From IMG/VR virus record IMGVR_UViG_3300035181_001055, positions 1 through 64,000 of that record: a stretch of 64,000 bases of DNA; one strand, 5' to 3'. Each line of letters opens with the position of its first letter. The first letter of the stretch is position 1. The position numbers were made by a program, and so were the translations under genes. This document shows positions 13,055-53,100 of this stretch, piece by piece. Origin of the DNA: a virus. The notes beneath the pieces are model-generated. The model was given only the letters and a program-made list of their open reading frames with translations. It had not been told where the DNA came from and did no database searches.

Positions 13055-13357
13055 ATGAAGTGCGACGATTGCATTTACGCTGGCATTGCGATCGTCTTTA
13101 TCGCACTGCTCTTCTTCGCTTCGCCTCTCATTGCTTCAATCGTCATATGCGTGTTCGGCTTGTCTTTAGTTATCGTCACATGCGTGTATGGTGCGCGCTT
13201 GATAATCTACAGCATCTTGTCTCGCATTGCTTTAGGCGAGACTGAACATTTCGTTATCGGTCTCATCATCACTATCATTGCTTCAATCGCCATCGCGGCA
13301 TTCCTCGCTAGTTGTCATCAAGTGCCCATGTTGCTTGTAAGGTTGCTTGACATCTGA
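13055..13357 (+). CDS. Small polytopic membrane protein, 100 aa
   Basis: Begins MKCDDC and has three hydrophobic helices (about 9-28, 28-50 and 66-86). An ATG at 13043 overlapping the previous stop is an alternative start; 13055 has GGGTG at better spacing. The last codons contain a decayed promoter cassette. Function unknown. Confidence 0.55.
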   Translation: MKCDDCIYAGIAIVFIALLFFASPLIASIVICVFGLSLVIVTCVYGARLIIYSILSRIALGETEHFVIGLIITIIASIAIAAFLASCHQVPMLLVRLLDI

Positions 13358-13366
13358 TGCTATATT
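13347..13366 (+). promoter_or_regulatory. Decayed promoter cassette (8-bp spacer)
   Basis: TTGACA 13347-13352 and TATATT 13361-13366 are only 8 bp apart; other cassettes have 16-17. It looks like an internal deletion of about 8-9 bp. TGC before TATATT still offers an extended -10, so weak activity is possible. Confidence 0.5.
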
Positions 13367-13398
13367 ATGCTTCTTCTACACAACCTCGAAAGGACAAT

Positions 13399-13704
13399 AT
13401 GAAAGTTTACACACAAGATGAGTTCAATGCTCTGCGCGTGATCGATGGCGCTCGTCAGTGCCCTACTGGCGATTACACACAAGTGAAGAACTTCGATTGC
13501 TGCACTTTCGCTGACTATTGCATCTTTGGCGATCATCATACATTCGCCGCAGGGACGAAGTTTGGCGCAGAATGCTATTTCGGTTCTCACAATCGCTTTG
13601 GCACTCGCTGTATCTTTGGCCGAAAGAGTCGCGTTGGCAAGGACAATCACTTCGGCGAAGCTTGCGGCTTTGGCGTCGGGTGCATCATCGATAATGCTGC
13701 TTAA
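13399..13704 (+). CDS. Hexapeptide (CxFGxx) repeat protein, short paralogue
   Basis: 101 aa, beginning MKVYTQDEFNAL. From about residue 33 it consists of ten 6-residue units with Phe, Gly and often Cys (CTFADY, CIFGDH, TKFGAE, CYFGSH and so on). The period and the F-G-x-x-C-x order match the left-handed beta-helix hexapeptide rule [LIV]-G-x-x-[STAV]-x, with Phe and Cys replacing the usual residues. Paralogues at 17529 and 18628 have the same N-terminus but an extra C-terminal domain, missing here, so this copy may be truncated. AAAGGA precedes the start. Confidence 0.7.
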   Translation: MKVYTQDEFNALRVIDGARQCPTGDYTQVKNFDCCTFADYCIFGDHHTFAAGTKFGAECYFGSHNRFGTRCIFGRKSRVGKDNHFGEACGFGVGCIIDNAA

Positions 13705-14086: not shown

Positions 14087-14605
14087 ATGAAGGTTTTTCG
14101 AGACATCGCTTGCAAGACGGTCGTCGTCATCGACGACTCTGTCTTCTACGGCATCACACGCTACAGCATCGACGAAATTCACAAACTGCAAGAGAAAGGC
14201 TTGCCTCCTAGCGTCATCGAGAAGATCCTTAGATCTTGCACTGGCAAGTCAACTGAGGAAGAAATCCGCGTATTTGCAACTGACGAGGACTTCACTGTTC
14301 GCTATGCCATTGCGAAGAGCGGTCATGCATTGGACATTCTTCTCCACGATGAGTACAGCATGATCCGCGAAGAGGTCGCCAAACATGGCTACGGGCTCGA
14401 CACTCTCGTCAAGGATCCTGTGCCTGGCGTCCGCATTGCTGTCGCCAAACAAGGCTATGGTCTCGATAAGCTGATTAACGATCCTCGCCCTGAAGTCCGC
14501 ATTGCTGTCGCCGAGCAAGGCTACGGTATCGAGACTCTTGCTCTCGATACTGACAAGCACGTCCGTCGAGTTGCAAGGCAGAAGCAAGCAGCCGTGACTG
14601 CCTGA
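14087..14605 (+). CDS. HEAT-like (YGLD-DP-VR) repeat protein, 172 aa
   Basis: After about 65 unique residues come four or five units of roughly 22-24 residues with the pattern YGLDxLxxDPxPxVRxAVAxQG. The period and the DP and VR positions resemble HEAT or leucine-rich-variant repeats, which form helical solenoids for protein binding. A larger paralogue lies at 24428. It is the first gene after cassette 2. The partner is unknown; a host factor is a reasonable guess for an early phage protein. Confidence 0.65.
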   Translation: MKVFRDIACKTVVVIDDSVFYGITRYSIDEIHKLQEKGLPPSVIEKILRSCTGKSTEEEIRVFATDEDFTVRYAIAKSGHALDILLHDEYSMIREEVAKHGYGLDTLVKDPVPGVRIAVAKQGYGLDKLINDPRPEVRIAVAEQGYGIETLALDTDKHVRRVARQKQAAVTA

Positions 14606-15630: not shown

Positions 15631-16014
15631 ATGCGTTATTTTTCTGAAGTGTCGCCGAAAGGCAATAGCTCTTGGAGTGATGTCAGCCAAGCCGAAGCCG
15701 ATGCTCGTCGCAAGGCTCTCGACGATGCTGGATGCGTCGATTGCCTCAACTGTATCAACTGCACCGATTGCGTCAATTGTATCAACTGCACCGACTGCGC
15801 GTCGTGTTCCAACTGCAGCAATTGCGCTAATTGCCTCGACTGTGTCGGGTGCGACGGTTGCTTCGAATGCGACGCTTGCAAGTACTGCGCCAACTGTTTC
15901 AACTGCGTCGGGTGCGACGGTTGCTTCGAATGCGACGCTTGCAAGTACTGCGAAGCCTGCGACGACTGCGACAATCGCGAGAACCTCGTCAATTACATTG
16001 GCTGCGCCGAATAA
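15631..16014 (+). CDS. Cys-x-x triplet-repeat protein
   Basis: 127 aa. After a 34-residue polar N-terminus, Cys occurs at every third position from C35 to C113: 27 consecutive C-x-x units, with Asn, Asp or Gly usually in the third place (CIN, CTD, CVN). One more Cys is near the end. At DNA level a 46-bp segment is repeated with a 63-bp period (15844 and 15907), so the array grows by unequal recombination. AAGGAA precedes the ATG. Metal binding or a three-sided solenoid are both conceivable; the family is not one I can name. A damaged second copy lies at 17.3-17.5 kb. Confidence 0.75.
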   Translation: MRYFSEVSPKGNSSWSDVSQAEADARRKALDDAGCVDCLNCINCTDCVNCINCTDCASCSNCSNCANCLDCVGCDGCFECDACKYCANCFNCVGCDGCFECDACKYCEACDDCDNRENLVNYIGCAE

Positions 16015-17111: not shown

Positions 17112-17148
17112 AACCCCATCAGTAACATGAACATTGGAAGTCAATATC

Positions 17149-17319
17149 ATAGAACTCGATTACAAGACTGTAGAAGACGCCGCTCGCTACCAATTCCTGC
17201 GCGATGGCAATATCAGTCGACTCGAATTCGTGGCTGACGAATATGGAGTCCTCGACTTCTATTCAGGAGATGCGCTCGACCAGGAAGTTGACAATCTCAT
17301 TCTCTCGGCTGCTCGATGA
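17149..17319 (+). pseudogene. ORF whose expected start codon is ATA
   Basis: Behind the cassette the leader ends GGAAG, 8 nt, ATA, exactly where every other cassette has ATG. From that ATA the frame reads IELDYKTVEDAARYQFLRDG on to TGA at 17317-17319 (57 codons with the ATA). A TTG at 17134 is in frame but has no ribosome site. The gene is either inactivated at its start codon or starts at a very rare codon. Confidence 0.5.
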
Positions 17320-17500
17320 GGCCGAATGCACCAATTGCATTGATTGCATCGATTGTATCAATTGTGATAACTGTGCCAATTGCATTCAATGCTCATACTG
17401 TGCCGATTGTACAAATTGCGTTAACTGTACTAGCACATTCTCATGCGCTAACTGTACTGTACAAACTGCACCAATAGCACGCTATGTGTTAGTAGCTTAA
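17204..17500 (+). CDS. Cys-x-x triplet-repeat ORF, second and probably decayed copy
   Basis: The supportable part is residues 42-81, where 14 Cys all sit on a 3-residue phase (CTN, CID, CIN, CDN, CAN and so on), with one gap of six. The first 40 residues overlap the preceding ORF in another frame and look like noise. No ribosome site or good start precedes the Cys block, and LLDEAEC here aligns with ALDDAGC of the intact protein at 15631. Probably a fragment fused out of frame. Confidence 0.45.
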   Translation: MAISVDSNSWLTNMESSTSIQEMRSTRKLTISFSRLLDEAECTNCIDCIDCINCDNCANCIQCSYCADCTNCVNCTSTFSCANCTVQTAPIARYVLVA

Positions 17501-17528
17501 CTGTCTAACCTTGAATCAGCCCAACATC

Positions 17529-18137
17529 ATGAAAGCATACACTCAAGATGAATTTGACGCATTGCCAATTGTGGATGAAATTCGTCAATGCCCTTCCGGT
17601 GACTATTCAGCAATCCGCGAGTTCAAAGGACAATGTTCTTTCGCGGCTAGGAGCTGCTTTGGCGCAGGAAGTAAATTCGATAACAGGTGCGAATTCGGAA
17701 ATTTTTGTGATTTCGAAAAGGGATGCATATTCGGATATCGTTGCATCTTTGGTGTATGGTGTGACTTCAAAGAACAATGTGTCTTTGATGAGCATTGTTA
17801 CTTCGGAACGAATTGTATGTTTGGCAAAGAATGCAGCTTTGGACCGCGATGTGATTTTGGTTGGTGCATTTTTCATGAAGGGTGCATTTTCAGCGGTCAT
17901 CGTGCAAAGCAAGGGTATCCAATTTTGACTTTGAAAGGCGCAGGATATGCTAACGGAACCATGAATGCTTTTAACACCGAAGGTGGTCCCTGGATAGAAG
18001 CTGAACTTTTCATGGGCGATCTTAAAGCATTTCGTGATTTTGCTAACAGAGAACACAATGAAATAAACTGCACTCAGTACTTGGCATTCGCCGATATAGT
18101 GGCGGCTGCATGGTGCTCTGAAAAGGATGAGGTCTAA
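17529..18137 (+). CDS. Hexapeptide (CxFGxx) repeat protein, middle paralogue
   Basis: 202 aa. MKAYTQDEFDALPIV matches the N-terminus of the paralogues at 13399 and 18628. Residues about 30-125 are 6-residue units such as CEFGNF, CIFGYR, CYFGTN, CMFGKE. The last 75 residues form a separate domain (GYPILTLKGAGY, EGGPWIEAELF, ADIVAAAWCSE) shared with the 18628 protein. A trimeric left-handed beta-helix is the likely fold. The ribosome site is weak; a TTG at 17511 is an alternative start. Confidence 0.7.
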   Translation: MKAYTQDEFDALPIVDEIRQCPSGDYSAIREFKGQCSFAARSCFGAGSKFDNRCEFGNFCDFEKGCIFGYRCIFGVWCDFKEQCVFDEHCYFGTNCMFGKECSFGPRCDFGWCIFHEGCIFSGHRAKQGYPILTLKGAGYANGTMNAFNTEGGPWIEAELFMGDLKAFRDFANREHNEINCTQYLAFADIVAAAWCSEKDEV

Positions 18138-18627: not shown

Positions 18628-19437
18628 ATGCACGTTTTCACTCAAGCAGAGTTCAACTCACTCCCCATCGTCAACGGATATCGTCAGTGTCCGTCTGGCG
18701 ATTATTCTGAAATCGTCACATTCGATAGAAGAAACGTATTCGCTGATGGATGCGTTTTCGCCGAACAATCTGTGTTCGGCGAATATTGCGAGTTTGGGAA
18801 GAACTGCATCTTCTCTGTTTGCTGCGAGTTCGGCTCTGGCTGCATTTTCCGCGCAAATTCCAAGTTCGGCAATTGGTGCGTATTCGCCGACGGATGTGTC
18901 TTTGACCACGACTGCGTGTTTGGCGGCGAGTGCTCGTTTAGTGAATTTTCAAAGTTCGGCGAAGCGTGCGTATTCGGATCGAAGTGCGTATCCGGCAGAG
19001 AGTGCATCTTCGGCGAGCAATGCCGATTCAGCACATCGAATCAATTTGGTGACTTGTGCGAATTTGCGGACGAATGCGTTTTTGGTCAATGGTGTCGATT
19101 CAGCGCATTGTGCAGCTTCGGGCATCAGTGCCAATTTGACAATCATTGCAAGTTCGGGATTGATTCTACTTTCGGTCAGAAATGCGTCTTCAATGGTCGC
19201 GTTGCACGTTCTAGTAACCCTGTAATGGTCTTGTCTTGCATAGGCAGCAACGGCTTAACAATCTATGCATTTGATGTTGAGGGCGGTCCGATCTTCGAGT
19301 TCAACGATTTCACTGGAAACTCAAACGAGTTCCTCGAGGAAGTCACCAAGTGCAGCGATCCTCTAAATCTAGCACAGTGCTTCGGTTTTGTTAGTCTTGT
19401 TGCATCCGTTTGGTTCTCTGAAACAACTCAAAATTGA
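18628..19437 (+). CDS. Hexapeptide (CxFGxx) repeat protein, long paralogue
   Basis: 269 aa, MHVFTQAEFNSLPIV at the start. About 27 six-residue units run from residue 33 to 193, many with both Cys and Phe-Gly (CEFGKN, CIFSVC, CEFGSG, CVFGGE). The C-terminal 75 residues repeat the domain of the 17529 protein (NPVMVLSCIGS, EGGPIFEFNDF, SVWFSET). Eighteen residues per turn would give roughly nine helical turns. GGAAAGG precedes the ATG, driven by cassette 6. Confidence 0.75.
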   Translation: MHVFTQAEFNSLPIVNGYRQCPSGDYSEIVTFDRRNVFADGCVFAEQSVFGEYCEFGKNCIFSVCCEFGSGCIFRANSKFGNWCVFADGCVFDHDCVFGGECSFSEFSKFGEACVFGSKCVSGRECIFGEQCRFSTSNQFGDLCEFADECVFGQWCRFSALCSFGHQCQFDNHCKFGIDSTFGQKCVFNGRVARSSNPVMVLSCIGSNGLTIYAFDVEGGPIFEFNDFTGNSNEFLEEVTKCSDPLNLAQCFGFVSLVASVWFSETTQN

Positions 19438-24349: not shown

Positions 24350-24427
24350 AGATGAAATGATCAAGACGCAAACACAGATGGATCTGATCGTTTGTGCAAT
24401 CGAACTCATTCGTTGAGGAGAGTTAGA

Positions 24428-25123
24428 GTGAAAGTCTTCTTCACCAGCAAAGGCAAAAAAGTCATCATCGTCTATTGCGACATTGTTATTGATAACAAAT
24501 TCTACTTTTACGAGGATATTCACGACCTCGTGAAAAACAAAAAGCTGACAGCTGAAGAATACGACGAGATCATGTCCGCATTTTCAGGTATGCCTGAAAC
24601 TGATGAGACCATCAACGAGTATGCTCGCAGCGAAGACCTTGATGTTCGCCGCATTTTGGCACAACTTGGGTATGCGCCCGAAATTCTGGTCAATGACCCT
24701 GATCATGCGGTTCGAACTGAAGTCGCTAATAATGGAGACTACCTTGAAAAGCTGATTAACGATCCACACCCCGTTGTGCGTTCAAAGGTTGCCGAACTGG
24801 GTTATAGGCTTGATATCTTGGTTAACGATCCAAGCCATATCGTTCGAGAAGTTGTTGCTGAGCAAGAATATGGGCTCGAAAAGCTGGTACACGACCCGTC
24901 ACCTTATGTTCGCGCTGCTGTTGCTGAGCAAGAATATGGGCTCGAAAAGCTGGTACACGACCCGTCACCTTATGTTCGCGCTGCTGTTGCTGAGCAAGAA
25001 TATGGCCTTGACATCCTTAAAAATGATGAACATCCTTATGTTCAAAAGGCAGTAGAGAAAGCGATCTTGAAACAAAAACAAAATAATGTTTCTGAAAATG
25101 AAGAAAGGGATAAAAATGTTTGA
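24428..25123 (+). CDS. HEAT-like repeat protein, 231 aa
   Basis: Starts at GTG 24428, placed by AGGAG at 24416-24420. After about 65 residues come seven units of about 22-24 residues with DPxxxVRxxVAExxYGLDxLV, the same repeat as the 14087 protein. Two adjacent units are identical at the DNA level with a 66-bp period. Its end overlaps the clpP-like start. Probably a solenoid protein-binding scaffold. Confidence 0.65.
   Translation: MKVFFTSKGKKVIIVYCDIVIDNKFYFYEDIHDLVKNKKLTAEEYDEIMSAFSGMPETDETINEYARSEDLDVRRILAQLGYAPEILVNDPDHAVRTEVANNGDYLEKLINDPHPVVRSKVAELGYRLDILVNDPSHIVREVVAEQEYGLEKLVHDPSPYVRAAVAEQEYGLEKLVHDPSPYVRAAVAEQEYGLDILKNDEHPYVQKAVEKAILKQKQNNVSENEERDKNV
24854..25004 (+). repeat. Tandem 66-bp direct repeat in the HEAT-like gene
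   Basis: Copies at 24854-24919 and 24920-24985 are identical, followed by a partial third copy to about 25004. Each encodes 22 residues, so copy number can change without breaking the frame. Confidence 0.85.
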
Positions 25124-52096: not shown

Positions 52097-53100
52097 TGGC
52101 AACTCAAAGAACAGTTTTACCTAGCGATACGTTTAATTCATGGAGATTGACGACTAATCAGATCAGTTCAGATTTGGTTAGCACAGAATCAAATATCAAT
52201 AACAGCATCGGGAATTTAAGTTCTCTAACTACTTTTGTTAAGAGTAGTTTGGTTGATGCAACAAATGAGCTAGTTGCAAATATCGGTTCTCTTTCATCAT
52301 TAACAACTACTAGCAAAAGCAATGTCGTTTCCGCGATAAATGAACTCGTCTCTAGCTTAAATAATCTCAATTCGGTTTTATCTAATGAAATAGGAACATT
52401 ATCTTCGCTCTCAACTAGCGATAAAACCTCTCTGACTGCAGCTATTAACGAAGTTAACACCAATAGCATTTCTCGGGATGGTTCTCTTTCAACATTAAGT
52501 ACCACAGCAAAAGATAATCTAGTAAACGCAATTAATGAAGTCGACGCTCTAGCTTCAAGCACATCAACAAAGGTTGGTGATCTTACTAGCCTCTCTACTA
52601 CAGATAAAACTAGCGTAGTAAATGCGATTAATGAAGTCAACACCAACAGTATTTCTCGGGATGGAACTCTCTCATCTCTGAATACTACAGCTAAAGACAA
52701 TCTCGTGAATGCAATTAACGAAGTTAATACTAACAGCATTTCTCGTGACGGAAGTCTTTCAGCATTAAACACCACAGCTAAAGATAATCTAGTAAACGCA
52801 ATCAATGAAGTTGATTCTTTAGCTTCAAGCACATCAACAAAGGTCGGCGATCTTAGCAATCTATCAACTACAGACAAAACCAGCACAGTTAATGCAATTA
52901 ATGAGGTCAATACTAATAGTATTTCACGCGACGGCTCTCTTTCAACATTAAATACTACAGCAAAAGACAACTTAGTTAATGCAGTAAATGAATTGCTTAG
53001 CAAAATCGGTAACTTGACTTTGCTTCAAACAACTGATAAAAATAATTTGGTTGAAGCTATCAATGAACTGAAAGCAAATCAAACTTCACACGGATGGTAA
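52096..53100 (+). CDS. Fibre shaft with AINEVN repeats
   Basis: 334 aa almost entirely of about nine imperfect units of 22-36 residues: SLSTLNTTAKDNLVNAINEV alternating with STSTKVGDLTSLSTTDKTSV. This TAKxxLVxAINEV repeat is common in phage fibre proteins and forms trimeric, partly helical rods. The DNA is repetitive too, so length may vary. No C-terminal tip domain is present. Confidence 0.75.
   Translation: MATQRTVLPSDTFNSWRLTTNQISSDLVSTESNINNSIGNLSSLTTFVKSSLVDATNELVANIGSLSSLTTTSKSNVVSAINELVSSLNNLNSVLSNEIGTLSSLSTSDKTSLTAAINEVNTNSISRDGSLSTLSTTAKDNLVNAINEVDALASSTSTKVGDLTSLSTTDKTSVVNAINEVNTNSISRDGTLSSLNTTAKDNLVNAINEVNTNSISRDGSLSALNTTAKDNLVNAINEVDSLASSTSTKVGDLSNLSTTDKTSTVNAINEVNTNSISRDGSLSTLNTTAKDNLVNAVNELLSKIGNLTLLQTTDKNNLVEAINELKANQTSHGW

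What the first reader, a model, noticed from the sequence alone, without database searches (positions are those of the whole stretch)
15631..16014. Protein made of 27 consecutive Cys-x-x triplets
Cys sits at every third residue from 35 to 113, with small or polar residues in between. I know no characterised phage family with this design. The array could bind many metal ions, act as a redox sponge, or form a three-residue-per-side helix. The embedded 63-bp DNA repeat shows recent expansion.
Basis: partly seen in the sequence, partly recalled or inferred. Interest (0 to 1): 0.75.

Follow-up and report, generated by a model that had tools for sequence, protein, structure and literature searches.

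The report
Phage cysteine-every-third-residue repeat protein
A phage gene encodes a small protein with a cysteine at every third residue 27 times in a row; it belongs to a large, unstudied phage family whose array replaces pentapeptide-type solenoids in otherwise shared proteins, so it is probably a very thin solenoid rod with a cysteine core rather than a metal sponge.

Summary
ORF 15631-16014 has 27 uninterrupted Cys-x-x triplets (C35-C113), a conserved N-terminal cap and a 63-bp tandem duplication. It is not unique. It matches phrog_15341 (unknown function), and relatives occur in Campylobacter and Flavobacterium phages, in many environmental phages and in bacterial genomes. Cys is strictly conserved while the residues between vary, and most rare interruptions keep the three-residue phase.

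The new result is modular exchange. One C-terminal domain follows CxxCxx arrays in 14 of 33 bacterial-genome loci and pentapeptide repeats in 15. A second follows CxxCxx arrays elsewhere and CxFGxx hexad arrays in this window; in relatives the CxxC and CxFGxx genes are neighbours. So the array most likely sits where other proteins have a solenoid.

A right-handed, 12-residue-per-turn beta-helix like Tenebrio antifreeze protein is the best geometric guess, supported by an AlphaFold model of moderate confidence and a profile match to 1EZG. A second AlphaFold job left the array unresolved. Odd and even Cys counts are equally common, so obligate full disulfide pairing is unlikely. The biological role is inferred only: a rigid scaffold for target-binding caps. 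A second copy in the window is broken by frameshifts.

The parts
15631..16014 (+). CxxCxx protein, 127 aa, intact copy
   Evidence: phrog_15341 E 3e-17
15631..15732 (+). N-terminal cap (residues 1-34), conserved MRYxSxxSxxGNxSWSxxSQxEADxRxxALDxAG
   Evidence: alignment A6; AF2 pLDDT about 80 for residues 1-30
15733..15972 (+). 27 consecutive Cys-x-x triplets
15837..15970 (+). 63-bp (7-triplet) tandem duplication inside the array
   Evidence: TRF; exact 45-bp core at 15844 and 15907
17134..17500 (+). second CxxCxx copy (12-13 triplets), apparently broken: cap-like part in another frame, array in frame 2 (17327-17437), last triplets in a third frame
17511..18137 (+). CxFGxx hexad-array protein (probably starting at ATG 17529) with the C-terminal domain shared with CxxCxx proteins elsewhere
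   Evidence: phrog_20532 E 0.0092; A3 vs A4 hhalign E 4.2e-6
18628..19437 (+). longer CxFGxx hexad-array protein with the same C-terminal domain
   Evidence: phrog_7964 E 2.7e-5 and phrog_20532 E 0.012; 31% identical to the 17511 protein
13357..13704 (+). short CxFGxx-type protein without the C-terminal domain

Best explanation
The gene encodes a cytoplasmic tripeptide-repeat solenoid: an N-terminal cap (short beta strands plus a helix), then a coil in which every third residue, Cys, points into a very narrow core. Each Cys-x-x triplet would form one side of the coil, four sides (12 residues) per turn, as in Tenebrio antifreeze protein and analogous to pentapeptide repeats, where five residues form one side. 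Because the unit is a side and not a whole turn, the array can grow or shrink by any number of triplets, which replication slippage keeps doing. Cys is kept because almost nothing else fits such a core (rare replacements are mainly Ser, some Gly or Ala); it need not be oxidised or metal-bound. The array serves as a rigid rod or display surface that phages exchange with pentapeptide and hexad solenoids while keeping the same C-terminal domains; the varied outward residues and caps probably bind a host or phage protein during infection. SHOWN: gene, array, conservation of Cys, family breadth, domain exchange, linkage to CxFGxx genes. PREDICTED: solenoid, 12-residue turn. INFERRED: reduced core, binding role.
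For: Domain exchange 1: the 'WHTC...TTHCRAGW' C-terminal domain (phrog_31265) follows CxxCxx arrays in 14 and pentapeptide repeats in 15 of 33 bacterial-genome loci; Pfam PF00805 confirmed at E 2e-20 to 5e-43 in the seven tested. Domain exchange 2: phrog_20532/7964 domain behind CxxCxx arrays (L073, L103) and behind the window's CxFGxx arrays; profile-profile Prob 86.9, E 4.2e-6. CxxC gene close to the CxFGxx gene in the window and in L250-L256 and L261. AF2 of the window protein: E--E--E pattern, array pLDDT roughly 55-71; best structural match 1EZG, Z 6.3, 78 of 82 residues aligned, next unrelated row 4.3. Profiles against PDB sequences: 1EZG best, E 8.3e-6 and 1.2e-4. In the beetle fold residues 2, 5, 8, 11 of 12 point inward (PMC8038014). 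18 of 23 interruptions keep the phase (p 1.3e-5). Cys purifying selection. No strongly hydrophobic N-terminus in the set.
Against: The second AF2 job (53 sequences) gave pLDDT under 50 over most of the array although its caps were about 90-98. The 1EZG profile hit carries a large composition bias, so it may reflect Cys spacing alone. A 12-residue periodicity of aromatics is weak once a Markov null is used (z 1.2; sign test 29:20, p 0.25). TmAFP folds with disulfides, which a reducing cytoplasm would not favour. The window protein itself lacks the exchanged C-terminal domains; the inference runs through its relatives. No functional data of any kind.
Confidence: 0.52

Rival explanations
1. Polythiol metal or Fe-S binder, or redox/thiol sink: the protein chelates Zn, Cu or Fe or soaks up oxidants or electrophiles during infection, and the Cys are there for their chemistry.
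For: Extreme and strictly conserved Cys content (2,822 regular steps in 122 arrays); CxxC is a common metal-binding spacing (general knowledge).
Against: The same terminal domains are attached to pentapeptide and CxFGxx solenoids without such a core. Interruptions keep phase and are mostly Ser, more like core packing than ligand loss. No redox-partner gene found: no Trx, Grx or radical SAM in the record, though the record may be incomplete.
Confidence: 0.2
2. Disulfide-ladder solenoid: as the best explanation, but Cys are oxidised in pairs across the core as in beetle antifreeze protein, formed after lysis or in an oxidising compartment.
For: 1EZG is the closest structure by fold and by profile and is disulfide-stabilised (PMC8038014).
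Against: Odd and even Cys counts are equally common (43 versus 39). No signal-like N-terminus. In the window array all four inward positions would be Cys, against two in the beetle protein.
Confidence: 0.13
3. DNA-mimic inhibitor like the pentapeptide proteins MfpA and Qnr, acting on gyrase or a DNA-binding defence protein.
For: The window protein is acidic (22 acidic, 8 basic residues); architecture shared with pentapeptide proteins; MfpA mimics DNA (PMC8145042).
Against: Charge is not conserved: about 77% of family arrays are net negative, with a weak mean of -0.14 per triplet and a range up to +0.9; many arrays are rich in Arg.
Confidence: 0.08
4. Substrate of a Cys-modifying enzyme (thioether-forming radical SAM, ranthipeptide-like).
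For: A radical-SAM gene lies about 0.8 kb downstream of the CxxC gene in Campylobacter phage CPt10.
Against: No radical-SAM match in the window's record; not seen next to the CP220 gene.
Confidence: 0.03

Closest known systems
phrog_15341 (PHROGs v4, unknown function); Campylobacter phage proteins such as CP220 gp032 and CPt10_1641
   Same: N-cap plus CxxCxx array; window protein E 3e-17, CP220 protein E 2.8e-53
   Different: nothing structural; the window protein is a diverged member; function unknown for all
Pentapeptide repeat proteins (PF00805), e.g. MfpA, Qnr
   Same: repeat unit proposed to be one side of a four-sided right-handed helix; CxxCxx relatives share the WHTC C-terminal domain with some of them
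   Different: three residues per unit instead of five, Cys instead of Leu/Phe plus Ala in the core; no Pfam match
Tenebrio molitor antifreeze protein (PF02420; 1EZG)
   Same: inward residue every third position, half of them Cys; best fold and profile match
   Different: no TCT ice-binding motif, Cys at all inward positions, not secreted, no evidence of ice binding; resemblance most likely convergent
Hexapeptide left-handed beta-helix-like CxFGxx phage proteins of the same window
   Same: adjacent genes; C-terminal domain homologous to that of some CxxCxx relatives
   Different: six-residue unit with Cys and Phe
Metallothioneins
   Same: very Cys-rich small protein
   Different: no CxC or CC motifs, strict CxxCxx period, N-cap; no family match

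Membership tests
phrog_15341 | HMM match over N-cap and array | tested here: met
   E 3e-17, residues 12-126
Pentapeptide repeat proteins (PF00805) | five-residue A(D/N)LXX repeats | tested here: not met
   no Pfam match for the window protein or for CxxC relatives
Pentapeptide repeat proteins (PF00805) | C-terminal domain found in some phage/prophage members (WHTC domain) | tested here: inconclusive
   shared by many CxxCxx relatives but the window protein itself ends after the array
Beetle antifreeze proteins (PF02420) | 12-residue TCTxSxNCxxAx consensus | tested here: not met
   no Pfam match; no TCT motifs in the sequence
Beetle antifreeze proteins (PF02420) | right-handed 12-residue beta-helix | tested here: inconclusive
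   AF2 moderate, VIA Z 6.3 to 1EZG; second AF2 job without confidence in the array
Beetle antifreeze proteins (PF02420) | disulfide between Cys 2 and Cys 8 of each coil | not testable with these tools
   no oxidation-state data; Cys count parity is random
Metallothionein | CxC / CC metal-cluster motifs | tested here: not met
   all array Cys are exactly three apart; no Pfam match
Radical-SAM modified Cys peptides | maturase gene nearby | tested here: not met
   no PF04055 match in the 126.8-kb record; record may be incomplete

The most novel reading that the evidence does not exclude
A phage-borne class of tripeptide-repeat solenoids: an exceptionally thin beta-helix with a reduced all-Cys core, one residue inward per side, freely exchanged with pentapeptide and hexapeptide solenoids on the same caps, and reached independently by beetle antifreeze proteins.
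Probability: 0.45. Interest if true: 0.75.

Novelty: new variant of a known kind. Interest (0 to 1): 0.56.

Why it matters
The family is common (363 viral stretches for one sub-family alone), has no Pfam or NCBIfam entry and no solved structure found here, and is a clean natural experiment on how short a solenoid side can be. If the array folds with reduced Cys it would show a thiol-packed protein core in a reducing cytoplasm; if it needs metal it would be one of the densest natural thiol ligands. Either result is reachable with one small protein.

Tried and rejected
Even-number-of-Cys signal was a regex artefact (non-overlapping matches); corrected to 43 odd, 39 even. A 12-residue aromatic periodicity looked strong against simple shuffles (1.33x, z 4.4) but is weak against a Markov null; treated as suggestive only. 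Foldseek against PDB gave no significant hit for either model, and VIA-align gave none for the WHTC-containing model, so the WHTC domain's function stays open. DNA-level search of phages listed only tRNA matches near the top. Many hits of the raw TGY pattern are out-of-frame or low-complexity and were not counted as family members. Direct BLASTP of window CxFGxx proteins with L103/L073 was insignificant; only profile comparison showed the shared domain. Literature searches found no paper on CxxCxx phage arrays; the CP220/CPt10 paper has no mention of cysteine or antifreeze in its main text. In one search six interruptions came from antisense-like frames; the count was redone without them.

Full report
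OBSERVATION. The ORF 15631-16014 (+) reads 127 aa: a 34-residue N-terminal part, then Cys at 35, 38 ... 113 without a break, then a short tail. The run is far beyond chance: no eight-Cys run in 100 dinucleotide shuffles of the window. The array holds a 63-bp and a 27-bp tandem repeat, so it has grown by duplication. The window is part of a 126.8-kb virus record with baseplate, ribonucleotide reductase and DNA ligase genes and six tRNA genes, that is, a myovirus-type phage; two tRNA genes follow the ORF directly.

SECOND COPY. A second array lies at 17327-17437. Its cap-like part is in a different frame (17134-17319) and its last triplets fall in a third frame, so this copy looks broken by at least two frameshifts. 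L002, a close relative of L001, also has a stop codon inside its array. Intact copies exist in related contigs.

FAMILY. Pfam and NCBIfam have no match. PHROGs phrog_15341, unknown function, matches both window arrays (E 3e-17, 1e-10) and the relatives. tblastn finds Campylobacter phages (CP220, CPt10 and others) and Flavobacterium phage FL-1. One sub-family alone has 363 viral stretches and members in Spirosoma, Dyadobacter, Phyllobacterium, Bosea and Kaistia genomes.

SELECTION. Between the window and L001, Cys codons show 9 identical, 7 synonymous and 1 changed; the codons between them 6, 5 and 21 (Fisher p 5.5e-5). Over 122 arrays there are 2,822 regular three-residue steps; of 23 credible interruptions 18 keep the three-residue phase (p 1.3e-5), and the replacing residue is mostly Ser. 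So the Cys positions are selected and behave as equivalent to one another; the residues between vary widely.

DOMAIN EXCHANGE (the main new evidence). Many relatives continue into a C-terminal domain with HTC...TTHCRAGW (phrog_31265). In 33 bacterial-genome loci with this domain, 14 have a CxxCxx array before it, 15 have pentapeptide repeats and 4 something else or are truncated; Pfam confirms PF00805 in the seven pentapeptide members tested. A second C-terminal domain (phrog_20532/7964) follows CxxCxx arrays in L073 and L103 and CxFGxx hexad arrays in this window (17511, 18628); the two versions align by profile at E 4.2e-6. In L250-L256 and L261, as in the window, CxxC genes stand 0.2-4.4 kb from the CxFGxx gene. 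CxxCxx arrays thus occupy the slot of known solenoids, and the shared domains do not require a Cys-triplet core. The window protein itself ends after its array, so for it the argument runs through its relatives.

STRUCTURE. AlphaFold2 of the window protein gives a cap at pLDDT about 80 and an array at roughly 55-71 with a bridge at every third residue. VIA-align ranks Tenebrio antifreeze protein 1EZG first (Z 6.3, 78 aligned), then weaker matches including pentapeptide proteins (Z about 3). Profiles of two alignments find 1EZG as best PDB sequence (E 8.3e-6, 1.2e-4), with strong composition bias. In that fold positions 2, 5, 8 and 11 of each 12-residue coil point inward (PMC8038014), which is exactly a three-residue period. 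A second AlphaFold job on a relative resolved both caps (about 90-98) but not the array. The 12-residue turn is therefore a reasoned prediction, not a result.

MECHANISM. I favour a solenoid whose unit is one side of three residues. It explains why any number of triplets is tolerated (odd and even counts 43:39), why a 7-triplet duplication is harmless, why replacements stay in phase and are mainly small residues, and why the array can be swapped with pentapeptide arrays. Random parity argues against obligate pairing of every Cys. The partner is unknown; paralogue expansion, variable outward residues and conserved caps point to a protein-binding scaffold used during infection. This last step is inference. 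Metal or redox chemistry is the main rival and is not excluded.

VERDICT. Observation confirmed. The protein is a member of a large uncharacterised phage family; the new points are the exchange with pentapeptide and hexad solenoids and the resulting tripeptide-solenoid model.

Noticed in passing
window 17134-17500: Second CxxCxx gene looks broken by at least two frameshifts directly upstream of a CxFGxx hexad gene.
   Followed up: partly
window 14087-14605 and 24392-25123 (repeats 14375-14532, 24853-25043): Proteins with about 22-residue repeats (DPxPEVRxAVAxQGYGLDxL; the first matches phrog_20647) carrying 66-bp tandem duplications, the copies at 24853-25005 being 100% matching; another repeat-protein family expanding in the same phage.
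   Followed up: no
window 13357-13704, 17511-18137, 18628-19437: Three CxFGxx hexad-array proteins with cap MKxYTQxEFDALPxVDGxRQCPxGDYS; 27 relatives in viral contigs.
   Followed up: partly
window 52444-52970: 270-bp tandem repeat within coding sequence in the structural-gene half of the window.
   Followed up: no
L002:5001-5400: In-frame TGA inside the CxxCxx array where the close relative L001 has GGA; the triplets continue in frame after it.
   Followed up: no
L261 (12.8 kb): Five separate CxxCxx genes around one CxFGxx gene, a local repertoire.
   Followed up: no
L231, L248: The WHTC domain also follows a leucine-rich-looking stretch (L231) and an Ala/Trp-rich array (L248); neither has a Pfam match.
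   Followed up: no
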